From: Chitinophaga pinensis
Lineage (GTDB): Bacteria; Bacteroidota; Bacteroidia; B-17B0; Aurantibacillaceae
Assembly: GCA_945860225.1 (NCBI GenBank)
Contig: CAMAPT010000007.1
Coordinates: forward strand, 62,001 to 126,000
DNA length: 64,000 nt
Reading direction: 5' to 3'
Below the pieces are notes generated by a model. The model saw nothing but the letters and a program-made list of their open reading frames with translations, was not told the DNA's origin and made no database searches. Shown here piece by piece: positions 48,807 through 61,674 of the stretch (its first letter is position 1; each line of letters starts with the position of its first letter). The position numbers were made by a program, and so were the translations under genes.

Positions 48807-50006
48807 TTAAATGGATACTATTTCTCGAATAGAATTCAGTACGATATCACAAGCCGTTTTTATTTCTTGGTCGCTAATAATTAATGGAGGTGCAATGCGC
48901 ATGGAGTGAGAATTAAATAAAAACCAGTCAACAATTAACCCATTTTTTACACAAGCTTGAATGATGTTCATATTTAAATCAGTATCTCCAAAATCTAATG
49001 ACAACATTAAGCCTTTTCCTTTAATGCTTTTAATGGCAGGATGAACGAGCAAGGAGCGAATCAATTGCGATTTACGTTCAACCTCGTTCATTAATTTTTC
49101 AGAATAAATGGTTTCTAAACAGGCCAAAGAGGCGGCGCAGCATACCGCATTTCCTCCAAAGGTATTGATGTTTCCAAGCACGGGATTATGGGTAAATTCA
49201 TTGAGGAACTTTTTGGAGCTAATAAAACACCCAATAGGTAGCCCACCTCCCATACCTTTAGCTACTAATAAAATATCAGGAACAATGCCGGTTTGTTCAA
49301 AAGCAAAAAAAGTGCCGCTTCTTCCAAAACCGTTTTGAATTTCATCCAAAATTAATAGGGCACAATGTTCGTCACATTTTTTTCGAATGGCTGATAAAAA
49401 CTCGTTCGATGCTACCGTGTAGCCTGTTTCACTTTGCACCGGTTCTAATATGACAGCTGCTGTTTTGGATGTAATGTATCGGTTCACATCTTCTACCGAA
49501 TTGTATTCCACTATTCTTACATCGGGTAATAAGGGCCTGAAAGCTTGCTTAAATGTTTCATTACCCATCACACTCAGCGATCCATGAGAGCTACCATGAT
49601 AGGAATCTTTAAAACAAATAATTTCTGTTTTTCCGGTTACGCGTTTAGCTAGTTTCAAAGCACCTTCAGTGGCTTCTGTTCCCGAATTGGTATAAAAAAC
49701 GGAGTTCAGGTTTTCGGGTAATAAATCGGTAATGGCTTTTGCTAATTTAATTTGTGGCGATTGCACATATTCGCCATACACCATCAAATGCATATAGGTT
49801 TCTGCTTGTTGCTTGATGGCATTTACTACATGCGGATGGCAATGCCCGACATTACTTACCGAAATCCCGGAAATAAAATCGATATAAGACCGATTTTGAT
49901 TATCAAATAAATAAACGCCTTGAGCTTTCGTGATTTCCAAATCCATCGGATTGGGAGATACCTGAGCTACGTGGTTCAAAAATAATTGCCTGTTTGAAAT
50001 TTGCAT
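48807..50006 (-). CDS. Class III PLP aminotransferase
   Basis: The 399-residue enzyme shows the class III motifs Y-I-D-F-I-S-G-I-S-V-S-N-V-G-H-C-H-P, Y-T-N-S-G-T-E-A-T-E-G-A-L-K-L-A, L-D-E-I-Q-N-G-F-G-R-S-G and the PLP lysine in V-A-K-G-M-G-G-G-L-P-I-G. It resembles acetylornithine or related omega-amino acid aminotransferases (ArgD-like). With no arginine genes nearby the substrate cannot be fixed. The start at ATG 50006 follows a TATATTTG box. Confidence 0.9.
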   Translation of the reverse strand: MQISNRQLFLNHVAQVSPNPMDLEITKAQGVYLFDNQNRSYIDFISGISVSNVGHCHPHVVNAIKQQAETYMHLMVYGEYVQSPQIKLAKAITDLLPENLNSVFYTNSGTEATEGALKLAKRVTGKTEIICFKDSYHGSSHGSLSVMGNETFKQAFRPLLPDVRIVEYNSVEDVNRYITSKTAAVILEPVQSETGYTVASNEFLSAIRKKCDEHCALLILDEIQNGFGRSGTFFAFEQTGIVPDILLVAKGMGGGLPIGCFISSKKFLNEFTHNPVLGNINTFGGNAVCCAASLACLETIYSEKLMNEVERKSQLIRSLLVHPAIKSIKGKGLMLSLDFGDTDLNMNIIQACVKNGLIVDWFLFNSHSMRIAPPLIISDQEIKTACDIVLNSIREIVSI

Positions 50007-50091
50007 AACAGAGCAAATATACTATTTGTCAAAAAATAGGTGTCGATTGAATAAAATAATAGGTTAATTTTACTTCCTAAATTTTTAAAAA

Positions 50092-53000
50092 ATGAAAAAA
50101 ATATTTTTTTTATGCCTTATAATGGTTAGCGTGTCAATGTCTTTTGGTCAGGCATACCAATTAAGCACTTTTGCAGGTGGTGGCTTTGGTGATGGTTCAG
50201 ACGCTAATTTAGCAAAATTAAACAACCCGGTTTGTGTGGTGAAAGATGCCTCAGGAAATTTGTATGTTTCTGATGAAAATCATTTTGTGGTTCGTAAAAT
50301 TAATGCGGCTGGTATTATTACTACCTATGCAGGTATTGGTACCGAGGGGTATTCGGGTGATGGGGGATTGGCTACAAAAGCTCAGTTAAATCATCCTAGA
50401 GGTTTGGCTTTAGATGCCGCCGGTAACTTATATATTGCGGATAAGAACAATCATTGCATTCGTAAAGTTTCAGTAAATGGCATTATCTCAACCGTTATAG
50501 GAAAAGGATATGGAGATAGTCTTGCAGCCACAAATGCCGTGTTAAATAATCCGGTTCAAGCCATTAAAGATGCTAATGGAAACATGTTTATTATTGATCA
50601 GATCAATAATCGTATTCGTAAAGTTAACTCTAATGGTGTAATTACTACCTATGCTGGTAATGGTCAAACGGGTTATTCGGGCGATGGAGGCCCTGCCACT
50701 CAAGCATCGTTTAATGTTATTACAGGTATCGCTTTGGATGCATCGGGCAATTTGTATGCGACAGATTCTTGGAACAATTGCGTGCGTAAAATTTCTACTT
50801 CAGGCATTATTTCAACTATTGCCGGTAACGGTCAATCGGGCTATTCGGGCGATGGCGGACCTGCTAATATGGCTTTATTAGCTTCTCCTGAAGATGTTGC
50901 CGTTGATAAAATAGGTAATATTTTCATTTCTACCGGAGATCGTAGAATTCGAAAAATTGCATTGGATGGCACAATCAGCACTTTTGCCGGAGTAGGTACT
51001 ATGGGATATAGCGGTAATGGTGGGCCTGCAGTTAATGCAGAGTTTAATAGTCCAGTTAGTATTGCTTTGGATGATTTAGGAAATATGTATGTGGCAGATT
51101 GTTATAATCATGTTGTTCGAAAAATCAATACATCTGGAGTGGTTTCCACTATTGTTGGAACAGGTGTGGGCGGATATTCAGGAGATGGCGGACTTGCCAC
51201 CGCTGCTCAATTGTATAATCCAATTGCTGTTGCTTTGGATGCGGCAAACAATCTTTATATTACAGCTGAAGGTCGCATTCGTAAAGTCGATCAAAATGGA
51301 ATTATTACCACAGTTGCAGGAATACAATCTATTACTTATTCGGGAGATGGTGGGCCTGCTACATCAGCCGGATTAGGTTTTCCTCAAAAAATATCCATTG
51401 ATAGCGATGGTAATTTATATATTGCTTGTGGAATACAAAGAATTCGTATGGTTAATTCCAATGGAGTTATTAGTACAATTGCAGGTACTGGTTTAACAGA
51501 CTATTGTGGCGATGGTGCTCAAGCGTCTAAAGCTATGTTGTTTTTTCCAGACGCAATCGCTTTTGATGCTCAAGGTAGTTTATATATTACAGATGTCGCT
51601 AATTTCAGAATTCGTAAAGTAGCTACAAATGGTATCATTACTACACTTGCCGGAAACGGTATTGAAAATTATTCAGGCGATGGTGGATTAGCAACATCGG
51701 CGAGTTTAAATGGTTTGTCGGGTATAGCTATTGATGGGACAGGTAATGTGTTTTTTTCAGCGGGACTGAATCGTATTCGTAAAGTTGATGTGAATGGCAT
51801 CGTTTCTACATTTGCCGGAAATGTCATTTCTGGTTTTATGGGCGATGGCGGATTAGCTACTTCAGCTCGTTTATATTCGCCCGAAGGTCTTGCTTGCGAC
51901 GCTTCCGGAAATTTATATATTGCTGATGCAAATAATGATCGTATTCGTAAAATATCTCCTAATGGCATCATTACCTCAATTGCCGGAAGTGGATTAAGAG
52001 GTGGTAATTGTCCGTTAAATTTTGGTAACGGAGGACAAGCCCTTCAAGCTTGCTTATATGCTCCCTCAGGTGTTTTTGTAGATCCATCAGGAGTCATTTA
52101 TATTGCCGACAGAGGCAATCAGCGAATACGTCAAATTGATAACAATGGTATTATTTCGAATGTTGCTGGGGTATCAAATTTTACAGGCGAGGGAGGGCTC
52201 GCTGCATCTGCCGATTTCTATTGGCCTTACGGATTAACATCTGATTCTAAAGGGAATATTTATGTGGCAGATCAATACCATGGTATTATTAGAAAAATTG
52301 ATAAGAATGGCATTATAACCACCATTGCAGGGAAACGTTTCAGATCATTTAGCGGAGATGGTGGCCCCGCAACTGAGGCAGTTTTAAATGACCCGAGAGG
52401 TGTGGCTGCTGATAAACAAGGTAATATTTATATTGCCGATACCTATAATAACCGTGTCAGAAAAATAGACGTGAATGGTATTATTACAACGATTGCTGGT
52501 TCTCAATTTTTTGGTGCCTTTGGCGATGGTGGTTTAGCTACCTCCGCTGCATTATATCATCCTACAGATATTGCCATAGATAATAGTGGGAATATTTATA
52601 TTTCCGATTCTGAAAATAACCGAATTAGAAAAGTAGATGTGAACGGAATTATTACGACTGCAGCAGGAAGTTCTACTGTAGGATTCGCGGGAGATGGTGG
52701 GCCTGCTACTGAGGCATCACTATATACACCTGGAGAAATTGCTTTGGATGATAAAGGAAATCTATATATTGTTGATACATATAACCAACGTATTCGTAAA
52801 GTGGATGCTAATGGCATTATATCAACCATTGCCGGAACAGGAAATGCAGGTAATTTTGGTGAGGGTTATTTGGCCGTTAATGCTGAGTTAAATGCTCCTG
52901 CAGGAATTGCTATTGATAAAAACGGCGTAATGTATGTTACTCAATTTGGTTCTCCCTTAGTTAAAAAAATAGATGTTAACGGCGTGATGACCACCATAGC

Positions 53001-53436
53001 GGGTAATCAGTCTTTCGGTTTTTGGAACAATGGTGGTGATGCGTTGCAATGTTCACTTACTATGCCTAGCGGAATTGTTGTTGATTCAATAGGTAATATT
53101 TATTTCGCAGATTTGATTAATAATCGTATTGGTAAATTGAGTCCGGTTCCATTTATACCAACGAGTTTAAATAATTTCGAATTAGAAAATGGCTTCAAGG
53201 TTTTCCCAAATCCAAGTAAAGGAAACATATCATTGGCTTTATTAGGTAAAAATGGTAATAGTGATTTGAAAAAAATAATGGTCTATAATATGTTTGGGCA
53301 AATAATTCATGAAGAAACGGTTTTTGATAAAACACCAGTTTCGCTCGATTTATCTCAACATCCAAAGGGAGTGTACGTTATTAAACTAACTACAAGTGAT
53401 AACGAACAAATTTGTGAAAAAATAATTTTAGAATAA
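50092..53436 (+). CDS. Secreted NHL-repeat protein with T9SS sorting domain
   Basis: The 1114-residue protein has a signal peptide (1-19) and 18 tandem NHL-type units of about 56 residues, each with G-D-G-G-x-A-T-x-A-x-L, G-N-L-Y-I-A-D and R-I-R-K-V patterns. These would form three six-bladed or similar propellers. It ends in a type A T9SS sorting domain of about 80 residues (F-K-V-F-P-N-P-S-K-G-N, then P-K-G-V-Y-V-I-K-L). It is therefore secreted through type IX secretion and probably surface-attached. The DNA of the repeats is itself similar and prone to recombination. A terminator follows 31 bases later. Confidence 0.92.
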   Translation: MKKIFFLCLIMVSVSMSFGQAYQLSTFAGGGFGDGSDANLAKLNNPVCVVKDASGNLYVSDENHFVVRKINAAGIITTYAGIGTEGYSGDGGLATKAQLNHPRGLALDAAGNLYIADKNNHCIRKVSVNGIISTVIGKGYGDSLAATNAVLNNPVQAIKDANGNMFIIDQINNRIRKVNSNGVITTYAGNGQTGYSGDGGPATQASFNVITGIALDASGNLYATDSWNNCVRKISTSGIISTIAGNGQSGYSGDGGPANMALLASPEDVAVDKIGNIFISTGDRRIRKIALDGTISTFAGVGTMGYSGNGGPAVNAEFNSPVSIALDDLGNMYVADCYNHVVRKINTSGVVSTIVGTGVGGYSGDGGLATAAQLYNPIAVALDAANNLYITAEGRIRKVDQNGIITTVAGIQSITYSGDGGPATSAGLGFPQKISIDSDGNLYIACGIQRIRMVNSNGVISTIAGTGLTDYCGDGAQASKAMLFFPDAIAFDAQGSLYITDVANFRIRKVATNGIITTLAGNGIENYSGDGGLATSASLNGLSGIAIDGTGNVFFSAGLNRIRKVDVNGIVSTFAGNVISGFMGDGGLATSARLYSPEGLACDASGNLYIADANNDRIRKISPNGIITSIAGSGLRGGNCPLNFGNGGQALQACLYAPSGVFVDPSGVIYIADRGNQRIRQIDNNGIISNVAGVSNFTGEGGLAASADFYWPYGLTSDSKGNIYVADQYHGIIRKIDKNGIITTIAGKRFRSFSGDGGPATEAVLNDPRGVAADKQGNIYIADTYNNRVRKIDVNGIITTIAGSQFFGAFGDGGLATSAALYHPTDIAIDNSGNIYISDSENNRIRKVDVNGIITTAAGSSTVGFAGDGGPATEASLYTPGEIALDDKGNLYIVDTYNQRIRKVDANGIISTIAGTGNAGNFGEGYLAVNAELNAPAGIAIDKNGVMYVTQFGSPLVKKIDVNGVMTTIAGNQSFGFWNNGGDALQCSLTMPSGIVVDSIGNIYFADLINNRIGKLSPVPFIPTSLNNFELENGFKVFPNPSKGNISLALLGKNGNSDLKKIMVYNMFGQIIHEETVFDKTPVSLDLSQHPKGVYVIKLTTSDNEQICEKIILE

Positions 53437-53467
53437 GTTTTTACATAGATTGGTTTATGAATGACTT

Positions 53468-53498
53468 GAGCGGCATAATAATATGTCGCTCTTTTTTT
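53468..53498 (+). terminator. Terminator of the NHL protein gene
   Basis: GAGCGGCATA and TATGTCGCTC form a 10-bp stem (one G-U pair) around four bases, followed by seven T. Confidence 0.85.
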
Positions 53499-53512
53499 AT
53501 TTTATTGTCTGT

Positions 53513-54010
53513 TACAGTAGAAAATTATGCCTTTTTAAATTTTCGTATCGAGAACTGTTTTAGTACCGACCTCACCCCCGGCCTTCTCCGAAAGGTGTCA
53601 TCCTGAGCCTGTCGAAGGAAAAGGGGAGTGTGTAGATACAATTTTTTGCGAGAGCAAAAGCAAAAAATCACTCAAGGCGACAGAGGTCTGTTCGAGTAGA
53701 AAATTCTGCCTCTTTAAATTTTCGTATCGAGAACTTATTTATGGCCTTTCGATACAATTTTTTGCAAGAACCAAGGCAAAAAATCACTCAAGGCGACGGT
53801 GCTCAGTTCGAGTGAAAATTATGTCTCTTTAAATTTTCGTATCGAGAACTGTTTTAGTACCGGCCTCACCCCCGGCCCCTCTCCAAAGGAAGAGGGGAGT
53901 GTGTAGATACAATTTTTCGCAAGAGCCAAGCCCAAAAATCACTCAAGACGACGGCTGTCTGTTCGAGTAGAAAATTATGCCTTTTTAAATTTTCGTATCG
54001 AGAACTTTTT
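53513..54010. repeat. Array of four dispersed-repeat units (left island border)
   Basis: The core TTTAAATTTTCGTATCGAGA (continuing ACT) occurs at 53534, 53713, 53828 and 53984, each preceded by a GTTCGAGTAGAAAATT-like segment. Between cores lie variable segments with CCTCACCCCCGGCC, an AGAGGGG hairpin arm, and an inverted repeat ATTTTTTGC...GCAAAAAAT. The first unit also contains TCCTGAGCCTGTCGAAGGA, a sequence common in Bacteroidota intergenic repeats. No coding region is seen from 53437 to 54162. Related units lie at 56669-56734 and 60831-61007. Confidence 0.85.
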
Positions 54011-54162
54011 TAATGTCTTTCAATCCAAAATGTATCTTTAAAATCGAGGTACGAGATTCGCTGATACATAAATAAAATAATAGTATCATCAGGACTCGCT
54101 CTCGGCTCCTATTCGAAATCAAATAGACAAAAAAATCAAAAAGGTAATACGTTTATTATTAT

Positions 54163-54582
54163 TTATTTTTTATAACAAACAGTCATCATATAATTTTTAA
54201 CCTCCCAAAGAAAGAGAATGGCATATATGGCGGATATAAAACCAAATAAAACGGCCGATAGAACAAGGAAAACTGTGCCAGACTCATATTTGATACCTAT
54301 TAAAGATGATATACTTACTAAAAATAGTTGTATAGTAAAATGAAAATATTCAATGATTGTAAATACCTGTTTGTTTTTTAAGCCATATCTAAAAATTAAA
54401 AATATCGTAAATAAGGCATTTACCGTCATTCCAAAATAGGTTAGGATTACTTTAAAACTAAACGTAGGGAGTGAATAAAATTTAGAAATGACTCCGGCAT
54501 ACAGGATTAAGGCCATACTTAATACAATTAATATTACAAGCAGTATGGCTGTTTTTTTATCTGTTTTTTGAATGGCAGCCAT
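54163..54582 (-). CDS. Small four-helix membrane protein, island
   Basis: The 139-residue protein has four hydrophobic segments (about 12-32, 40-63, 80-100, 103-125) and few charged loops. I recognise no family. Its ATG overlaps the stop of the preceding gene as TAATG (54584-54580), so translation is coupled to the 121-residue protein. Both would be controlled by the palindrome at 54979-55001. Confidence 0.7.
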   Translation of the reverse strand: MAAIQKTDKKTAILLVILIVLSMALILYAGVISKFYSLPTFSFKVILTYFGMTVNALFTIFLIFRYGLKNKQVFTIIEYFHFTIQLFLVSISSLIGIKYESGTVFLVLSAVLFGFISAIYAILFLWEVKNYMMTVCYKK

Positions 54583-54947
54583 TATGTTTTGTTTTTAATT
54601 AGTTTAATCTGTTCTACTTTACCCTTGTTGACAGAAATTTTATAAGTACACGCCTTGCCCTCAATTTCAGTTTTAAGAAAAATGTCTTTTGTAATTTCAA
54701 TCAAAACCAGTCCTATAAATTTGGATTTTTGTATTCTTCTTTGAGAAACTTTGTTACCAACTTTCTGTTTTTGAGTTATTACTTCCCACTGTTCACGGTA
54801 CAAATAGCCATCATAACTAATGGTGTATTGCTCGTTTCTGTTAAATCCCCAATCAATATCAAAATTAATTTCAAGATTTCTTTTTTGTAAAGCTTTAGAT
54901 ATGGGTAGCAGATAGCTTGGTATTCTTGCTGAATCAGGAGTCTTCAT
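54582..54947 (-). CDS. Hypothetical soluble protein, island
   Basis: The 121-residue protein starts M-K-T-P-D-S-A-R-I-P and is basic, with alternating strand-like segments (Y-T-I-S-Y-D-G-Y-L-Y, C-T-Y-K-I-S-V-N-K-G-K-V). There is no signal or membrane helix and no known family. It is the first gene of a bicistron with the membrane protein and has a TATTTTTG -7 box and an island palindrome upstream. Confidence 0.65.
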   Translation of the reverse strand: MKTPDSARIPSYLLPISKALQKRNLEINFDIDWGFNRNEQYTISYDGYLYREQWEVITQKQKVGNKVSQRRIQKSKFIGLVLIEITKDIFLKTEIEGKACTYKISVNKGKVEQIKLIKNKT

Positions 54948-54963
54948 AAAGAGTAATTTTAGC

Positions 54964-54971
54964 CAAAAATA
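54964..54971 (-). promoter_or_regulatory. -7 box of the island bicistron
   Basis: On the minus strand TATTTTTG matches TAnnTTTG, 17 bases before the ATG at 54947. Its centre is 22.5 bp from the centre of the palindrome at 54980-55000. Confidence 0.5.
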
Positions 54972-54978
54972 GAATGCA

Positions 54979-55001
54979 TAAACGCAGCGTGCATGCGTTT
55001 A
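54979..55001. promoter_or_regulatory. Island palindrome, site A (probable WYL operator)
   Basis: TAAACGCA-GCGTGCA-TGCGTTTA is a perfect 8-bp inverted repeat with a 7-base spacer. It lies between the WYL gene and the bicistron, across the expected -33 region of the bicistron promoter. A repressor bound here would block it. Confidence 0.6.
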
Positions 55002-55010
55002 ATTATTTTA

Positions 55011-56027
55011 TTAAAGAACAATCTTGTTTTTTTCAAATCTCAATTGAGCAATATCTCTAATTCTGTTTTTAATGTTATCCGTATCTAACAGTACATTTTC
55101 GCAATGTGCCAAAAACCATTGTATGAGTTCGTGTGTAGGAATCACTTTTATAGTCATTCTTGTCAACAAAGGATGGGTTTGACGCGAAATTTTTTGGCTA
55201 TGATGAAGAGGGTTCATTTCTAGTAGATAACTATATTTATTAGAAACGTAAAATTTAATAATTTGCTTTTTTTCGTTTTTTAAAGGATACACTCCGTACA
55301 TATCCTTAGCATATTTAACTACCTCTTTGCGCTTACTATCGTTAAATTTAATGGTTGTTATTACATCAAAATCAGGCATAATTCTATCAAACCCATAAAC
55401 CTTTAATTGCTTGGATAATTGCGAATAGGCCAACAAATACCATTTATGATTAAATTCTAATAGCTGATAGGGGTGAACAACGATTATATCGGCTTCCGTT
55501 AAACTTAAATAAAATATTTTGATGACTTCCTTTTTTTTAATATGCTCTAATAATGGCTTGTAATGAAAAAATCCCCATTGTTGAGGTGCTTGCTGAGAAA
55601 CAACTAAAGGGATTGAGTCGTGCGTGGTTGCTTTTTTTACGGATAAACTATTGATGAGTTTGATACATGCGCCACGGCATTCGTCGTTCATATGTTTTTT
55701 GCTAATAGTACTCCATAATTCCAAAGTTTCTGCCATTATTTGAGCTTCATCATTACTTAAAGGTATAGCATTAATAGAATAATTTTCATCAGTGTAAAAA
55801 TACCCATCTTTACTTTTGCTATATTTTATAGGAGCTTTGTAACCAAGTACTTCATCTTCTTTCATGGTTTTAATGTCTTTCTGGATGGTACTTACCGAGA
55901 AATCTTTACCCAATGTTTCCTTTAGTGTTTGAATAATATACTCCATCGAAGGAAATGGATGTCGTTTATTTCCAATACAGGAATCAATTATTTTGTACCT
56001 TAAATAGGCTTCTTTATTTAGTGACAT
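55011..56027 (-). CDS. WYL-domain transcriptional regulator
   Basis: The 338-residue protein has an N-terminal winged-helix DNA-binding part (about 5-80: S-V-S-T-I-Q-K-D-I-K-T-M-K-E-D), a linker, a WYL domain (about 160-225: I-F-Y-L-S-L-T-E-A-D, V-V-H-P-Y-Q-L-L-E-F-N-H-K-W-Y-L-L-A-Y) and a C-terminal WCX-like extension (L-I-Q-W-F-L-A-H-C-E-N-V). WYL proteins sense nucleotides or nucleic acid and control many phage-defence systems (BrxR, CapW). Sites matching AAACGCA-N7-TSCGTTT lie around this gene. It is probably the regulator of the island. Confidence 0.9.
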   Translation of the reverse strand: MSLNKEAYLRYKIIDSCIGNKRHPFPSMEYIIQTLKETLGKDFSVSTIQKDIKTMKEDEVLGYKAPIKYSKSKDGYFYTDENYSINAIPLSNDEAQIMAETLELWSTISKKHMNDECRGACIKLINSLSVKKATTHDSIPLVVSQQAPQQWGFFHYKPLLEHIKKKEVIKIFYLSLTEADIIVVHPYQLLEFNHKWYLLAYSQLSKQLKVYGFDRIMPDFDVITTIKFNDSKRKEVVKYAKDMYGVYPLKNEKKQIIKFYVSNKYSYLLEMNPLHHSQKISRQTHPLLTRMTIKVIPTHELIQWFLAHCENVLLDTDNIKNRIRDIAQLRFEKNKIVL

Positions 56028-56043
56028 GTTATTCCAAATATAG

Positions 56044-56066
56044 TAAAACGCATTTAAATAGGTTTA
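56044..56066. promoter_or_regulatory. Island palindrome half-site at the WYL promoter
   Basis: TAAAACGCA (56044-56052) matches the left arm of the island palindrome; the right arm (AGGTTTA) is degenerate. It lies just upstream of a TATATTTG -7 box (minus strand, 56042-56035) and the WYL start, which would suit weak autoregulation. Confidence 0.35.
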
Positions 56067-56088
56067 AGTTTTAATTGGTAGTTAGAAT

Positions 56089-56493
56089 CTAATCTGTTTT
56101 TTTATTAATAAATAATTTGATACACATCATGGTGCCAATAATTAAAAAAGCAATTCCTATCAGCAGATGACAAATGGATTTATTAAAATCGCTTAATCTT
56201 TCTATAAAATAGTCATTTAATAATAAGGATCCTACAATTATACATGCGCTTATAACAGTTATTTCCAAAAATAATGTTTTGATTTTTTTAGATATATTTT
56301 TAATATGTATGCTAATGATAAATGGAATAATGGATACACAAATACAAGATATAGGTAAAATATCAGCTAGTGTATTTGTTTTATTTAGAACTCGTATTAG
56401 CTCTATGTATAAACTAACGGTTATGATATCAAAAGCTATGATACACAATATGGTTGTTGCTTTTTCTAATTTGGTTTGTTGAGTGGATTCCAT
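56089..56493 (-). CDS. Small four-helix membrane protein, island
   Basis: The 134-residue protein has four hydrophobic helices (about 13-33, 43-63, 75-93, 105-127) and short charged loops. The family is unknown. It resembles the 139-residue island protein in size and topology, though not clearly in sequence. Its promoter region (56531-56568) carries the -7 box TAGTTTTG and a perfect palindrome. Confidence 0.65.
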   Translation of the reverse strand: MESTQQTKLEKATTILCIIAFDIITVSLYIELIRVLNKTNTLADILPISCICVSIIPFIISIHIKNISKKIKTLFLEITVISACIIVGSLLLNDYFIERLSDFNKSICHLLIGIAFLIIGTMMCIKLFINKKTD

Positions 56494-56530
56494 GAGCTTT
56501 TTTTTAGTATTTGTATAATTTATTTTTACA

Positions 56531-56568
56531 CAAAACTAATTTTGTAAAACGCACTGATTATGCGTTTT
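56531..56568 (-). promoter_or_regulatory. -7 box and island palindrome, site B
   Basis: TAGTTTTG (minus strand, 56538-56531) is a TAnnTTTG box. AAAACGCA-CTGATTA-TGCGTTTT (56546-56568) is a perfect 8-bp inverted repeat with a 7-base spacer. The centre-to-centre distance is 22.5 bp, the same as at the bicistron promoter. Confidence 0.6.
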
Positions 56569-56668
56569 TGTAAAATTTAATGCAGATTATAGACTTTTTT
56601 TTAGAATAATCCTCACTATTGAAACTATCCGAGGAGCGATATTATTAAAGAAAAATTTATTTTTGCAC

Positions 56669-56734
56669 CGTCTGTTAGAATTAAAATTCTGTTTTTTGAA
56701 TTTTTATATCGAGAAATTTTTTAATGCCTTTTAC
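56669..56734. repeat. Degenerate copy of the dispersed repeat
   Basis: This stretch aligns to GTCTGTTCGAGTAGAAAATT... and the TATCGAGAA core of the border repeats, with many changes. It is an older copy inside the island. Confidence 0.6.
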
Positions 56735-56735
56735 T

Positions 56736-56757
56736 AAAACGCAAATAGAATCCGTTT
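56736..56757. promoter_or_regulatory. Island palindrome, site C
   Basis: AAAACGCA-AATAGAA-TCCGTTT is the island palindrome with one mismatch in the right arm. It lies 65 bases before the broken gene at 56823 (plus strand). Confidence 0.5.
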
Positions 56758-56822
56758 GACTGATTTAATAATTGTATTTTAAAATATTGAATTAATAATC
56801 AAATCACTATAAAATCAAAAAT

Positions 56823-57071
56823 ATGCACAAGGACGAAAAAAACACATTTGACCATGAAGCACAAAAAGCACAATAACTTAAACATATTCATGAGTATTCA
56901 CCACTTATTAAAACGCCATTAGATCCAAGTGATGTAAGAGATCTTTGCCGTTGTATTTTCCGAAAACAAATAACCATTGATTTGCTTTCTAATGAAGTAT
57001 TTGAAGAATTAAAAGCAACCGATTTTTTTAAATCACTGTTGTCTAATAATAAAATACAAATTAGTACTTAA
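56823..57071 (+). pseudogene. Small island gene interrupted by TAA
   Basis: The frame runs for 83 codons from ATG 56823 to TAA 57069 with one internal stop at codon 18 (56874-56876). After the stop it reads L-K-H-I-H-E-Y-S-P-L-I-K-T and continues with D-V-R-D-L-C-R. The first 70 bases after the stop region recur at 59442-59510, where the matching codon is CAG. I recognise no family. It has an island palindrome upstream. Confidence 0.5.
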
Positions 57072-57146
57072 GCGTATATACCTTAGGTTCTACTATCTTA
57101 ATTTTGGGCTATAATCAATTATTTATTTAACGCTAACAAATTAAAA

Positions 57147-57491
57147 ATGGAAAATTTACCAATCAAACTAAGAAGAAATAAATCTACCTTTGTTACAATT
57201 GAAGCAAATACTCAAATAACATTTGCCTTAGCTGGTGGCATTGATTACAATGAGGATTTTTTTGAATTAAGATACAAGGGTAAAAAATACGCTAATCTTC
57301 CAGTAAAATTTACTTATAATGATGCTAATGGTTTTATTGTAAGTTATATTAAAATTATACCATCTGGTGGCTATTTTTCTTGGCGTAATGAATATAGTAT
57401 AGAAAATTCGAATTTTGGTTTATTGTCATTATCTTGTACTGAATACGTAGAATTTCTTTTTCGAGTTTATCGCAACCATTTCCAAAAATAG
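57147..57491 (+). CDS. Hypothetical protein, island
   Basis: The 114-residue protein (starts M-E-N-L-P-I-K-L-R-R) is beta-rich and aromatic, with G-G-I-D-Y-N-E-D-F-F-E-L-R-Y and S-G-G-Y-F-S-W-R-N. There is no signal peptide, membrane helix or known family. It lies downstream of the interrupted gene with 75 bases between and may share its transcript. The 248 bases that follow hold only tiny or degenerate frames. Confidence 0.5.
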   Translation: MENLPIKLRRNKSTFVTIEANTQITFALAGGIDYNEDFFELRYKGKKYANLPVKFTYNDANGFIVSYIKIIPSGGYFSWRNEYSIENSNFGLLSLSCTEYVEFLFRVYRNHFQK

Positions 57492-57739
57492 TATAGTTTA
57501 AAAGTAGTAATATTTAAACTGGAAACCCGATGAAAAAACTAAAAGCATTTTGCCTGTATTTATAGAGTCATACAAAAATTTCACGACAAGGAAGAAATGA
57601 CACAATTTAATCTTCCTGACGAATTTCAAAGTCTTTTAAATAAAGTTTTAAATTAATCAAGTAGCCTTTAACAGAAATACTGAATTTAATCGCAACGCTA
57701 TCAGCTGCTACCAGTAATGGGCGCAAAAACAAAAATTCA

Positions 57740-58264
57740 ATGAAAAATTTAAGACTTAAATATAAATTAGCTATTATTCCTAAAGACACTATTCTATTTA
57801 GAAAAGCTCCCGACAATGGAATTTATGAATCTATGTATTTTAGTTTTAATTCAAGTGGCACGTATAGTTCTGACTTTAATTCTGGACCAATACAACAATG
57901 GAAAACAAAACAAACTATTATCTCACGCTTAATAGTAAAGGGTAAAATTTCTCCGCTCATATATGGTACTGATTTAGAATTTTGTTACCATCAATTCTGT
58001 GGTGAGGACAAGTATTATTTAGACGTGAAGCATCGCCATAATCCTAAATGCAAAGACTTCTTAGCTTCTTTAAAAAACATTGGAATTGATAGTTGGGTAA
58101 CATCTATTCATAATGGAACTGACATAGAATTACATTTGTTTACAGACAATAATAAAAATTTAATTCAATTCAAAAAAAATATTAACAATGAAAAAAATAG
58201 AATTATAATAAACAAAGATTCTTTTAATAAAGTAATTTTATTAGACCCGAAAGATTACACATAG
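57740..58264 (+). CDS. Hypothetical protein, weakly ART-like, island
   Basis: The 174-residue protein has the N-terminal pattern I-I-P-K-D-T-I-L-F-R-K followed by S-M-Y-F-S-F-N-S and a region with L-I-V-K-G-K-I-S. This arrangement (K-x-T-x-L-x-R, then Y-F-S) vaguely recalls ADP-ribosyltransferase- or RES-type toxins, but I cannot name the catalytic residues. It may equally be unrelated. Its end overlaps the pseudogene on the other strand. It is A/T-rich like the rest of the island. Confidence 0.5.
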   Translation: MKNLRLKYKLAIIPKDTILFRKAPDNGIYESMYFSFNSSGTYSSDFNSGPIQQWKTKQTIISRLIVKGKISPLIYGTDLEFCYHQFCGEDKYYLDVKHRHNPKCKDFLASLKNIGIDSWVTSIHNGTDIELHLFTDNNKNLIQFKKNINNEKNRIIINKDSFNKVILLDPKDYT

Positions 58265-58633
58265 TTCATGCTGCCAATAAGCAATTCGGCAAGCCGATAT
58301 GATTACGTATTTTTTGTAGCTTGAAAAAAATATTCCTTCTCTTTTTTCACTGCTTTCAATTTCGTTTAGTATAGCAAAGGCTAGATGTGTTGCGCCATTT
58401 CCGATAATACTAGAAATACCCAATACATTATAAGTTGTTTTGTTAAGCGCAAATTGTATAGCCGTTGATTTTGCTATTTGATTTGAGTCAATAGATATGA
58501 AGTTATTGAAACTATAATGCTCTTTTGCTGGATATTTTGATGAGTAATTATTAATTATATTGTCATATATTGTATTTGTGATGTTTAATTTTTTAAGTGG
58601 TTTCGAGCTTTTCCTAATGTGATTAGCTGCTGA
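58241..58633 (-). pseudogene. Start-less fragment, possibly beta-ketoacyl-synthase-like
   Basis: An open minus-strand frame of about 130 codons runs from after a stop (58636-58634) to a stop at 58241, without any ATG. It reads F-N-N-F-I-S-I-D-S-N-Q-I-A-K-S-T-A-I, then Y-N-V-L-G-I-S-S-I-I-G-N-G-A-T-H-L-A. The spacing recalls the middle of beta-ketoacyl-synthase-like proteins. Both ends are missing, so it is a remnant. The tail overlaps the 3' end of the opposite gene. Confidence 0.4.
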
Positions 58634-58648
58634 TTATTTTAGACAGTT

Positions 58649-59395
58649 TTAGCCGCCTAATAATTTTTTTTGTCTTACCGCAAAAGGAAACCAACATTTT
58701 CTTTGCTTATTTACTTTCAATATTGGAGTTTGCTCATCAGTCAAATAATTAACAATATATTTTTTTGTTTTTGTAATGGCATGATGAATGGGTAAAATAT
58801 TAAAACTACTTGGTTTTTCAACCCATTCTTTTGTTGTGTTAAGTAGTGATGTTGTAAAATATCCTCCATGATTATTGTCAAAGGATGTCTCTCCGATACA
58901 ACAAGAATAACAAACAATAATTCCGTTCTCACATTTATTTATATATCCGTCAAATAGTCGTCGTGCCTTTGTTTTTAGTAACCTTGATGGAAATGAACAC
59001 AACTCCTCACCTATAAACCCTGAGATTCCACTGTCAACAAAACTTCTACAAGCGTCAACAATAAGCATTTGCTTTGGAACTTTTTTTGCAATTAAATTAT
59101 TAAGAGTTAAATACTCCGTTCTATTAATAGCAAGAATAGTTTGCCCTTGAAGGGAATAAGCACCATGCCCAGAAAAAACAATCAGTAAATAGTCCGCATC
59201 TACTTTGTTAATTGTATTAAGCAATGTGTTCTTCTCAGGATTTTTTATTGCAAGGATTTCAGTTTTGTCCCACGCACCGCCAGTTGGAGACTTTAAGAAC
59301 TTTATATAATTCTTAATATCATACTCAACACCATGAAGATATTTTTGTGTATTTTCTTGTCCTGGTGCTTCGATTAAAATTGCTTGTCGTTTCAT
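58649..59395 (-). CDS. Caspase-like protease 1 (peptidase C14), island
   Basis: The 248-residue protein is a bare caspase-fold domain. It has V-F-S-G-H-G-A with the catalytic His near 77 and I-V-D-A-C-R-S with the catalytic Cys near 116, and an N-terminal strand M-K-R-Q-A-I-L-I-E-A-P-G. There is no added effector, repeat or membrane part. It is the last gene of a minus-strand operon after caspase 2. Such stand-alone bacterial caspases act as effectors or activators in several defence systems; the target here is unknown. The start is ATG 59395. Confidence 0.88.
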   Translation of the reverse strand: MKRQAILIEAPGQENTQKYLHGVEYDIKNYIKFLKSPTGGAWDKTEILAIKNPEKNTLLNTINKVDADYLLIVFSGHGAYSLQGQTILAINRTEYLTLNNLIAKKVPKQMLIVDACRSFVDSGISGFIGEELCSFPSRLLKTKARRLFDGYINKCENGIIVCYSCCIGETSFDNNHGGYFTTSLLNTTKEWVEKPSSFNILPIHHAITKTKKYIVNYLTDEQTPILKVNKQRKCWFPFAVRQKKLLGG

Positions 59396-59441
59396 TTTAT
59401 GTTAAATCAAGGGTTCTCAAATTTAGTTGGAAGTTCAATAT

Positions 59442-59510
59442 CACACAGCTTAAACAAATTCACGAGTATTTACTCCTTATTAAATGCCGCTACACTCTAG
59501 TGATGTATAA
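59442..59510. repeat. Second copy of the broken-gene segment between the caspases
   Basis: This stretch aligns over about 68 bases (roughly 70% by eye) with 56869-56937 of the interrupted island gene. It fills most of the gap between the two caspase genes and enters the 3' end of caspase 2, whose last codons are read antisense through it. Confidence 0.55.
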
Positions 59511-60262
59511 GTGTGTTTCACACCAATCGGAAAGTTTGGTTTTAGTTCTGTAACCAAATACGAAGGTCTTTGAGTTGTTTGGCCTGAAGTATAATTCCTT
59601 TTAAGAAAAGTGGTCGTCATTTTACCAACTTCTAAAGCCGTCAAAACACTATCACCAGTATTGATATTCGACCAATGTTGAGAGGAAGTAAGCAAAGCAT
59701 AACTAAAAAAACTACCTGTTTGTGTCAATACAGACTCTTGCCCACGTGAACATGACATCAAAATCTGCGTTCCATTTGGACTGTTTTTTATAGCATCATT
59801 AAATAATTGACGCGCGCGAGGTTTAGCAATCGAAGAACGAAAACTCATGTACTTTTCCACATTGTCGATACCTTCAAAATAATGATACCCTTCCATGTAA
59901 CTCTGACAAGAATCAGAGATAATAAGTTTTTTTGGTGATTGTATATTGTCAATTATAGTTTGAACTGCAACGGCATCATCCGCATTGATATTAAAAACCA
60001 TCTTTTCTGTATTAGTTGCAAAGAAACCATGGCCACTAAAAATGAAAATTGTGAAATCGGCTTTTGAAGTTATCAATTTTGCTTTTAAGTATTTCCAGCC
60101 TGGATTTTTTAAAATTGTTATCTCGTTGTCAGAATCAAAAGCACCGCCTATCGCTGATTGAAAGTAGCGATTGTAATTAATAACGTCTGCCTTAATTCCA
60201 CTTTGAAAAGAGCCATTTTCATTAACAGGAGAACCTACTATAAAAATTTTACGTGTAAACAT
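59480..60262 (-). CDS. Caspase-like protease 2 (peptidase C14), island
   Basis: The start is ATG 60262 (260 residues); an earlier frame start at 60316 overlaps the upstream gene and has no family support. F-I-F-S-G-H-G holds the catalytic His (about 78), and I-I-S-D-S-C-Q-S holds the Cys (about 119). The N-terminus has M-F-T-R-K-I-F-I-V-G-S-P-V. It is clearly related to caspase 1 in layout but diverged. The last 11-12 residues are encoded by the antisense of the repeat at 59442-59510. It follows the 60270 gene by seven bases. Confidence 0.87.
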   Translation of the reverse strand: MFTRKIFIVGSPVNENGSFQSGIKADVINYNRYFQSAIGGAFDSDNEITILKNPGWKYLKAKLITSKADFTIFIFSGHGFFATNTEKMVFNINADDAVAVQTIIDNIQSPKKLIISDSCQSYMEGYHYFEGIDNVEKYMSFRSSIAKPRARQLFNDAIKNSPNGTQILMSCSRGQESVLTQTGSFFSYALLTSSQHWSNINTGDSVLTALEVGKMTTTFLKRNYTSGQTTQRPSYLVTELKPNFPIGVKHTYTSLECSGI

Positions 60263-60269
60263 ACTTTTC

Positions 60270-60692
60270 TTAATTAAATATTGCCCAGTTTTTATTAGGT
60301 ACTCCCTTAATACCATAATAAACTACAAAATCAAATTCTTCTTGAGAGGTTGCAGAAATATAAATGTGTTTATCTACTAAGCTTGTAGATAAAATCTTAG
60401 GGAATGTAGTAAAACCCTTTCTACCAATGCCAAAATAATACATGTTGGCATTGTTCTTTTTTTCGAGAAGTCTTAATGGTACTTTTACAGTCTCGCAAGA
60501 TATTACATTTTCGTTGTCAAAATTGAAATTAAGGGTTATGGCATCAATATTACCCTTTTTCATTTCAATCCCTATTAAAAGTATATGCCCATTTAATGCA
60601 AGAACTTTTTGAAATTTCTCTGAATTTTTAAGTGTGAATTTCATGTCTATTTTTGTTAAGTTATCAATAGGATTCACTTCCAATTTTTTCAT
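60270..60692 (-). CDS. Hypothetical protein leading the caspase operon
   Basis: The start is set at ATG 60692 (140 residues). The frame is open up to ATG 60761, but that start would put the island palindrome (60728-60748) inside the gene; ATG 60644 is another choice. The protein is mostly beta-strand (L-N-G-H-I-L-L-I-G-I-E-M, A-I-T-L-N-F-N-F-D) and ends in V-V-Y-Y-G-I-K-G-V-P-N-K-N-W-A. It has no signal peptide, membrane helix or family I know. As the first gene before two proteases it may be their substrate, inhibitor or sensor; that is a guess. Confidence 0.6.
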   Translation of the reverse strand: MKKLEVNPIDNLTKIDMKFTLKNSEKFQKVLALNGHILLIGIEMKKGNIDAITLNFNFDNENVISCETVKVPLRLLEKKNNANMYYFGIGRKGFTTFPKILSTSLVDKHIYISATSQEEFDFVVYYGIKGVPNKNWAIFN

Positions 60693-60727
60693 TAGTTGAT
60701 TTATTTTGAGTGCAAGTTCGGAATGTT

Positions 60728-60748
60728 GAACGCAAAGGAAATCCGTTT
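60728..60748. promoter_or_regulatory. Island palindrome, site D, before the caspase operon
   Basis: GAACGCA-AAGGAAA-TCCGTTT matches the consensus AAACGCA-N7-TSCGTTT except for the first base. It carries the same right arm as site C. It lies 36 bases upstream of the ATG used for the operon's first gene. Confidence 0.5.
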
Positions 60749-60830
60749 TACAATAGATCATGAATTTTCATGAAAAACGAAATAATTCCCCAATAGTAGA
60801 GTTGATTTTTCGATTTTAAATTCAACTCAT

Positions 60831-61007
60831 TTTTAATTTTCGTATCGAGAACTGTTAGTACCGGCCTCACCCCGGGCCGCTCTACAAAGGAAGAGGAGAG
60901 TATATAAATACAATTTTTTGTAAGAACCAAGTCAAAAAATCACTCAAGGGGATGATGGTCTGTTCGAGTAGAAAATTCTGCCTCTTTAAATTTTCGTATC
61001 GAGAACT
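60831..61007. repeat. Dispersed repeat units (right island border)
   Basis: Two cores of the same family as 53513-54010 lie at 60831 and 60985, with the CCGGCCTCACCCC segment, the GAAGAGGAGAG arm and the ATTTTTTG...CAAAAAAT inverted repeat between them. This array closes the island on the side of the core gene yigZ. Confidence 0.85.
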
Positions 61008-61065
61008 TATTTAATATCCTTATAACGGTTTATGTATCTTGTGAAAAAGATTTAAATTTAGAACG

Positions 61066-61674
61066 TTATTTATAGCTCAATATAAGGCCTTCAATTTTTT
61101 TGAGTTTTTCTTCGCAAAGTTCGGCATTGGCTTTACGCACCTTAAAATTGATTTCACAAGCATTGTCAAATGCCTGATGAGTAATTTTAACATCCAGTTG
61201 CTTCAGTAATTTCATGACCTCATTGAGTTGCTTAAAATTAAATTGGATATGGTATGAAAATAAGATGTGTTTTTCGATAACATTTGCTGCTTTAATGGCC
61301 TCTGCTGCAGCCTGTTTATATGCATTAATGAGTCCACTTACCCCAAGCAAAGTTCCTCCAAAATACCTAACCACCACAATACAAATATCCGTTAAGTCGT
61401 TCGATTGTATTTGCCCTAGTATGGGTTTTCCGGCTGTGTTTGAAGGTTCGCCATCGTCGTTTGCTCTTACATTTAGTTTATCTTCTCCCAAGCGGTAGGC
61501 GTAGCAATGATGATTGGCGGTGTGGTGTTCTTTTTTTAAGCGCTGTAAAATTTCTTTAACCTGTTGTTCGTTGGTTATAGGATAGGCAAAGGCTAAAAAC
61601 TTACTGCCTTTATCTTTAAAAATAGCCTCACTGTTTTGGTCGATGGTTAAATAGGTATCCGAAAATAAGCTCAT
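61066..61674 (-). CDS. YigZ/IMPACT-family protein
   Basis: The 202-residue protein has the UPF0029/IMPACT core K-F-L-A-F-A-Y-P, D-D-G-E-P-S-N-T-A-G-K-P-I-L, V-V-R-Y-F-G-G-T-L-L-G-V-S-G-L and a C-terminal ferredoxin-like DUF1949 part. Family members are thought to act in translation stress or nucleotide handling; the function is not fixed. It is the first core gene after the island, and shares a run with the EamA and ribD genes (spacings of 3 and 1 bases). Confidence 0.92.
   Translation of the reverse strand: MSLFSDTYLTIDQNSEAIFKDKGSKFLAFAYPITNEQQVKEILQRLKKEHHTANHHCYAYRLGEDKLNVRANDDGEPSNTAGKPILGQIQSNDLTDICIVVVRYFGGTLLGVSGLINAYKQAAAEAIKAANVIEKHILFSYHIQFNFKQLNEVMKLLKQLDVKITHQAFDNACEINFKVRKANAELCEEKLKKIEGLILSYK

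What the first reader, a model, noticed from the sequence alone, without database searches (positions are those of the whole stretch)
54163..60761. Candidate WYL-controlled caspase island
Seen: a WYL-domain regulator, two small membrane proteins, broken genes and an operon of a beta-rich protein plus two bare caspase-like proteases lie between two arrays of the same dispersed repeat. The palindrome AAACGCA-N7-TSCGTTT occurs at 54979, 56546, 56736 and 60728, with a half-site at 56044, all outside gene bodies as annotated here. Known: WYL regulators BrxR and CapW control phage-defence systems through inverted repeats, and caspase-fold proteases act in bacterial defence. Inferred: the regulator silences the caspase operon until infection or DNA damage. 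I know of no described system with this set.
Basis: partly seen in the sequence, partly recalled or inferred. Interest (0 to 1): 0.82.

Follow-up and report, generated by a model that had tools for sequence, protein, structure and literature searches.

The report
WYL-operated island carrying bacterial caspases
In a Bacteroidia genome a WYL regulator probably switches a small acquired island, including an operon of two stripped-down caspase proteases, through a DNA site that travels with this regulator across the class; the promoter layout suggests it turns the genes on, rather than merely silencing them as first proposed.

Summary
Four palindromes (54980, 56547, 56737, 60728) stand before the island's transcription units. 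The strict motif has four places in the 2.9-Mb genome, three of them here. A matrix built only from operators of other genomes ranks exactly these four first in 64 kb. Relatives of the WYL gene (29-46% identity) across Bacteroidia carry the same palindrome beside them, so it is very likely the operator of this WYL clade. Empty sites in related genomes show the region is inserted.

Two parts of the interpretation change. First, a sigma -7 box lies 7-9 nt after the palindrome at 15 of 17 sites with no -33 box, the layout of ssDNA-sensing WYL activators such as DriD; 'silencing' is not supported, though not excluded. Second, the caspases are not obligate WYL partners: similar bare caspases sit alone in many Bacteroidota, and no other locus has the operator before them. 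The caspase site matches the matrix fully but is one of the two without a standard -7 box, so caspase control is the weakest link. The most likely reading is a locally recruited caspase effector operon in a DNA-damage or phage-response island. Function is untested. This is a new variant of a known kind.

The parts
53534..54020 (+). left array of the dispersed repeat (core TTTAAATTTTCGTATCGAGAAC, 4 copies)
   Evidence: 57-bp perfect direct repeat 53685-53741 = 60957-61013
54163..54582 (-). 139-aa protein with four hydrophobic segments, no known family
54582..54947 (-). 121-aa soluble protein, no known family; first gene of a two-gene unit with 54163-54582
54964..55000 (-). composite promoter: operator 54980-55000 (AAACGCATGCACGCTGCGTTT) + 8 nt + -7 box TATTTTTG (54964-54971)
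55011..56027 (-). WYL-domain transcription regulator, 338 aa (helix-turn-helix, helical linker, WYL, C-terminal extension)
56089..56493 (-). 134-aa protein with four hydrophobic segments; probably co-transcribed with the WYL gene (61-nt gap)
56531..56567 (-). composite promoter: operator 56547-56567 + 8 nt + -7 box TAGTTTTG (56531-56538), reading into 56493 and the WYL gene
56693..56731 (+). degenerate copy of the flanking repeat inside the island
   Evidence: 87% identity
56737..56757 (+). operator AAACGCAAATAGAATCCGTTT before a broken gene; no standard -7 box
56824..57072 (+). broken gene (internal stop); a 36-nt part recurs at 59449-59484 between the caspases
57147..57491 (+). 114-aa protein, no known family
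57729..58271 (+). mobile cassette with a 174-aa protein (CDS 57740-58264); 87% identical protein next to a WYL operon in G076 and in G081
   Evidence: dN/dS 0.14
58319..58597 (-). fragment of a DnaA-type P-loop ATPase downstream of caspase 1; intact 65% relative lies before a bare caspase in L107
58649..59395 (-). bare caspase 1 (248 aa), His/Cys dyad present
59480..60262 (-). bare caspase 2 (start ATG 60262), His/Cys dyad present; 76% identical relative in G081, dN/dS 0.23
60270..60692 (-). 140-aa protein of the caspase operon, start ATG 60692; an orphan, probably all beta
60712..60748 (-). operator 60728-60748 before the caspase operon; at 8 nt only GAACTTGC (60712-60719), not a TAnnTTTG box
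60829..61021 (+). right array of the dispersed repeat (2 copies, same orientation)
50007..61065 (.). whole inserted region between an aminotransferase gene (48807-50006) and a yigZ-like gene (61066-61674), adjacent in relatives

Best explanation
The island is an acquired accessory block governed by its own WYL regulator. The WYL dimer binds AAACGCA-N7-TGCGTTT. At its promoters this palindrome occupies the place of the missing -33 box, so RNA polymerase needs the bound WYL protein: it most likely acts as an activator, as DriD does, when its WYL domain binds a signal such as single-stranded DNA from damage or infection. The targets are (a) the membrane protein + WYL unit (autoregulation), (b) the 121-aa + membrane protein unit, (c) the operon of the beta-rich protein and two bare caspases, and (d) a gene now broken. 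The induced caspases would then act as effectors by cutting cell proteins. Shown by sequence: operator, its link to this WYL clade, promoter spacing, intact caspase dyads, insertion. Inferred: activation, ssDNA signal, caspase control in vivo, defence role.
For: Operator blind test: a matrix from 12 sites in other genomes ranks the four window sites top of 64 kb, 23.0-23.5 against 15.6 for the next. Strict palindromes lie beside WYL relatives in G246, G300, G343, G278, G178 (exact) and G041 (one mismatch), and in G413 out of sample; 5 exact in 90 kb of WYL loci, none in 226 kb of control. Spacing: TAnnTTTG 7-9 nt after the palindrome at 15 of 17 sites against 3.7% expected, no -33 TTTG anywhere; the same geometry and poor -35 are described for DriD (PMC12340889). 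The WYL profile matches PafB (1.8e-10) and DriD (4e-7) better than BrxR (1e-4) and CapW (2e-3). Defence context: 4 of 7 WYL loci adjoin known or candidate defence genes, IetAS among them. Caspase dyads intact, purifying selection dN/dS 0.23. Empty sites in 11 of 16 relatives.
Against: The caspase-operon operator has one mismatch and no standard -7 box; only a post hoc match to the alternative box TAnnTTGY (PMC9723704) with one mismatch. No other of about 25 caspase loci has the operator upstream, so the caspase link rests on one genome. Two genes of the island are broken, so it may be decaying. No expression, binding or phage data exist. Profile scores against PDB reflect which homologues are solved and do not prove mode of action. 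The arginine that is nearly invariant in the WYL clade (aligned to 209) is lysine here.
Confidence: 0.5

Rival explanations
1. The WYL protein is a repressor like CapW and BrxR: it sits on the palindrome, blocks sigma at the -33 region, and lets go when it binds ssDNA, so the caspase operon is silenced until infection.
For: CapW and BrxR are WYL repressors of defence operons that bind palindromes of about 20 bp (PMC9122588, PMC9122601). An operator over the -33 region can also block polymerase. A toxic protease operon would be expected to be kept silent.
Against: Fixed 7-9 nt spacing to the -7 box at 15 of 17 sites and absence of any -33 TTTG leave little for sigma to recognise without help; repressor operators need no such rigid register, and CapW sites overlap the -10 box.
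Confidence: 0.3
2. The caspases are mobile cargo with their own regulation; the operator at 60728 is a leftover or unused site and the WYL protein governs only the membrane-protein units.
For: Bare caspases occur alone at many loci without WYL or motif; the caspase site is one of the two sites lacking a TAnnTTTG box; neighbouring genes are broken.
Against: The site scores as high as the other three in a matrix made from other genomes, lies 35 nt before the start codon like the other targets, and caspase 2 is under purifying selection.
Confidence: 0.25
3. The island is a decayed genomic scrap: a repeat-rich insertion site that collects cassettes, with no working system left.
For: Broken DnaA-type ATPase and plus-strand gene, repeat arrays on both sides and inside, a shared 174-aa cassette.
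Against: WYL, both membrane proteins and both caspases are open reading frames with catalytic residues intact, and the operators remain at full score.
Confidence: 0.15

Closest known systems
DriD of Caulobacter crescentus (WYL activator of the SOS-independent damage response)
   Same: WYL architecture with a helical region between helix-turn-helix and WYL; palindrome of about 20 bp over a poor -35, at one distance from the -10 box; targets include BapE, a damage-induced death effector (PMC12340889)
   Different: Different operator sequence, different phylum; activation and ssDNA sensing not tested here; targets are a compact acquired island with caspases
CapW / BrxR WYL repressors of CBASS and BREX
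   Same: WYL regulator encoded beside defence-type genes, binds a 20-25-bp palindrome, local regulon
   Different: CapW operators overlap the -10 box; here the operator replaces the -33 box at fixed spacing; sequence profile is closer to PafB and DriD
PafBC (mycobacterial WYL activator)
   Same: Sigma adaptation at promoters that lack a usual -35 contact, response to ssDNA (PMC11804915)
   Different: Heterodimer in which only PafB contacts promoter DNA; no palindrome
Bare Peptidase_C14 proteases of Bacteroidota (and caspase-like effectors such as the TIR-activated one cited in PMC13373217)
   Same: Caspase fold with His/Cys dyad
   Different: No TIR, NTPase or partner domain fused or intact beside them; here two in tandem with an orphan beta protein

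Membership tests
WYL-domain transcription regulators | WYL domain with N-terminal helix-turn-helix | tested here: met
   Pfam PF13280 E 3.7e-8 above cut-off; HTH_11 weak (0.024); W-Y-L at 196-198
WYL-domain transcription regulators | a palindromic operator near its own locus | tested here: met
   phylogenetic footprint across Bacteroidia and blind matrix test; no binding assay
DriD-type WYL activators | operator over the -35/-33 region at constant distance from the -10/-7 box, poor -35 | tested here: met
   15 of 17 sites, none with TTTG at -33; but the caspase site and 56737 fail the -7 part
DriD-type WYL activators | ssDNA binding triggers transcription activation | not testable with these tools
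   needs protein work; a near-invariant arginine of the clade is lysine in this protein
CapW/BrxR repressors | sequence relationship to CapW/BrxR | tested here: inconclusive
   profile hits 1e-4 to 2e-3, weaker than PafB and DriD
CapW/BrxR repressors | operator overlapping the -10 region (CapW) | tested here: not met
   palindrome ends 7-9 nt before the -7 box
Peptidase_C14 (caspase) proteases | caspase domain with catalytic His and Cys | tested here: met
   PF00656 3e-12 and 8e-7; SGHG and DxC in both, invariant in A1
Known anti-phage defence systems (PADLOC) | match of the effector operon to a described system | tested here: not met
   only a weak 'caspase' match 0.0024 and generic WYL matches
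Integron cassettes | integron integrase in the genome | tested here: not met
   no match over the TIGR02249 cut-off; best match lacks the middle region

The most novel reading that the evidence does not exclude
A clade of DriD-like, damage-sensing WYL activators in Bacteroidia runs accessory defence islands through one composite promoter (AAACGCA-N7-TGCGTTT-N8-TAnnTTTG), and in this genome it has captured a two-caspase operon, making a minimal bacterial pathway from DNA damage to caspase.
Probability: 0.35. Interest if true: 0.8.

Novelty: new variant of a known kind. Interest (0 to 1): 0.55.

Why it matters
WYL regulators are known mainly as local repressors of defence operons or as genome-wide damage activators. 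A conserved composite promoter that ties a Bacteroidia WYL clade to changing island cargo gives a searchable handle (palindrome + 8 nt + -7 box) for finding its targets, and makes the question 'how are bacterial caspases switched on?' directly testable in one short locus.

Tried and rejected
Half-site near 56044 as a fifth operator: rejected (score 8.2). C13:35151 as a distant regulon member: rejected for now, a perfect 10-1-10 palindrome among CobW-type genes without the spacing. Window membrane proteins as relatives of the small membrane proteins beside other WYL genes: no detectable homology. Beta protein as a relative of the WYL-downstream small protein: no; its weak hits in G004 and G308 are in unrelated housekeeping loci. 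Fold searches: models too poor (pLDDT 40 and 46), so not run. Integron origin: no integrase. Viral origin: no caspase or WYL relatives and no composite promoter in viral contigs. Homology of the caspase promoter and the G041 promoter beyond the operator: not significant. UPA-FIIND identity of the WYL-downstream protein: one of nine members, just under cut-off, not used. More distant WYL relatives (27-31%) mostly lack this exact operator.

Full report
What is there. The island lies between two direct-repeat arrays (53534-54020 and 60829-61021) that share a 57-bp perfect repeat; a degenerate copy at 56693-56731 divides it. Between them, on the minus strand, are a 134-aa four-segment membrane protein followed closely by the WYL gene; a 121-aa protein followed by a 139-aa four-segment membrane protein; and an operon of a 140-aa beta-rich protein, caspase 2 and caspase 1, followed by a fragment of a DnaA-type ATPase. 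On the plus strand are a broken gene, a 114-aa protein and a 174-aa protein in a mobile cassette. In 11 of 16 same-genus relatives the yigZ-like gene at 61066-61674 and the aminotransferase gene at 48807-50006 are neighbours, directly or with little between them, so about 11 kb is inserted here.

The motif is real and local. Three exact copies and one with a single mismatch lie in 5.8 kb; dinucleotide shuffles of the window never reach the count. In the 2.9-Mb genome the strict motif has four places, three in the island. Among 87 genomes of the family 13 have any place, each just one except this genome.

The motif belongs to the WYL clade. WYL relatives were fetched without regard to the motif. 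G246 (44%), G300 (43%), G343 (37%), G278 (34%) and G178 (33%) have exact copies near the gene; G041 (46%) and G123 (33%) have one-mismatch copies; G413 gave a hit out of sample. Five exact copies lie in 90 kb of such loci, none in 226 kb of control loci. The controls' one-mismatch hits are loci that had been fetched because they hold the motif, so only the exact count is a fair control. A symmetric matrix trained on twelve sites from other genomes puts the four window sites at ranks 1-4 of 64 kb, with a gap of more than seven bits to the next. More distant WYL relatives (27-31%) mostly do not carry this operator; two of them have CTACGCA-N7-TGCGTAG or TGCGTAC upstream, which looks like drift of the same site and was not tested further.

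How it probably acts. At 15 of 17 sites facing genes a TAnnTTTG -7 box starts 7-9 nt after the palindrome (8 nt at ten of them; chance 3.7%) and no site has a -33 TTTG. Facing strands were chosen by eye from gene starts and some sites are related, so the printed p-value of 5e-20 overstates; the effect is nevertheless large. The palindrome thus covers the -33 region. This is the geometry of DriD, whose sites lie at a constant distance from the -10 box over poor -35 elements (PMC12340889), and differs from CapW, whose palindromes overlap the -10 box (PMC9122588). The profile of the clade also fits PafB and DriD chains better than BrxR and CapW chains. I therefore favour activation, with repression as the main rival. 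ssDNA as the signal is taken from the relatives and is not shown.

The caspase link. Both caspases keep the catalytic pair; caspase 2 evolves under purifying selection against its 76% relative in G081 (dN/dS 0.23). Their operon has a full-scoring operator 35 nt before its start codon, but the -7 box there is not the standard one: GAACTTGC at 8 nt fits the alternative TAnnTTGY box of flavobacteria (PMC9723704) with one mismatch, noticed after the fact. Elsewhere the caspases live apart: about 25 loci with bare caspases, nearly all Bacteroidota MAGs, of which only L102, L111 (the same contig as L060) and L112 also hold a WYL gene, and none has the operator before the caspase. So the caspases are mobile effectors recruited here, not a fixed half of a WYL-caspase system.

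Context. Four of seven WYL loci adjoin known or candidate defence genes: IetAS in G300, PDC-M30 in G041, PDC-S26 in G123, an NsnA match in G178. DnaA-type ATPase genes recur: broken here, intact before a bare caspase in L107, and beside a WYL gene in G298. These support a defence or conflict role by association only.

What would change the verdict is listed under next steps; binding at 60728 and the sign of regulation are the two deciding experiments.

Noticed in passing
57729-58271; L068:2860-3396; L074:1-544: A 174-aa gene of unknown family moves as a unit with sharp DNA borders (89% identity inside, none outside); in relatives it is bounded by GTTAGTGG...CCACTAAC ends that look like attC sites.
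   Followed up: partly
L059:4752-5529, L060:3087-3864, L100-L113: A 247-aa bare caspase, closely similar among MAGs of different lineages, occurs as a lone mobile gene; in L059 it is followed by a hairpin-like TTTAACAGCGTGTAAGC...CTACACGCAAACCGTTA element resembling an integron attC site, though no integrase was found in the window's genome.
   Followed up: partly
L107:5203-5877; window 58319-58597; L158:7522-7865: A DnaA-type P-loop ATPase family recurs beside bare caspases and beside WYL genes.
   Followed up: partly
L132:8624-9028 and alignment A4: The small beta-rich protein encoded directly after many WYL relatives (absent in the window) just misses the Pfam UPA-FIIND cut-off in one of nine members; UPA-FIIND is a domain of the animal inflammasome proteins NLRP1 and CARD8.
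   Followed up: partly
L062:4352-6486 (G026, G034): Bare caspase in an operon with an XRE-type regulator, a 125-aa protein and a membrane protein: another small caspase unit with a different regulator.
   Followed up: no
genome contig C13:35151-35171 (L016:4152): Perfect 10-1-10 palindrome AAACGCAACAGTGTTGCGTTT between genes of a CobW-type metal cluster, possibly a Zur-like box that resembles the WYL operator.
   Followed up: partly
L162:7174, L164:6710: More distant WYL genes have CTACGCA-N7-TGCGTAG or TGCGTAC upstream, a possible diverged form of the operator.
   Followed up: no
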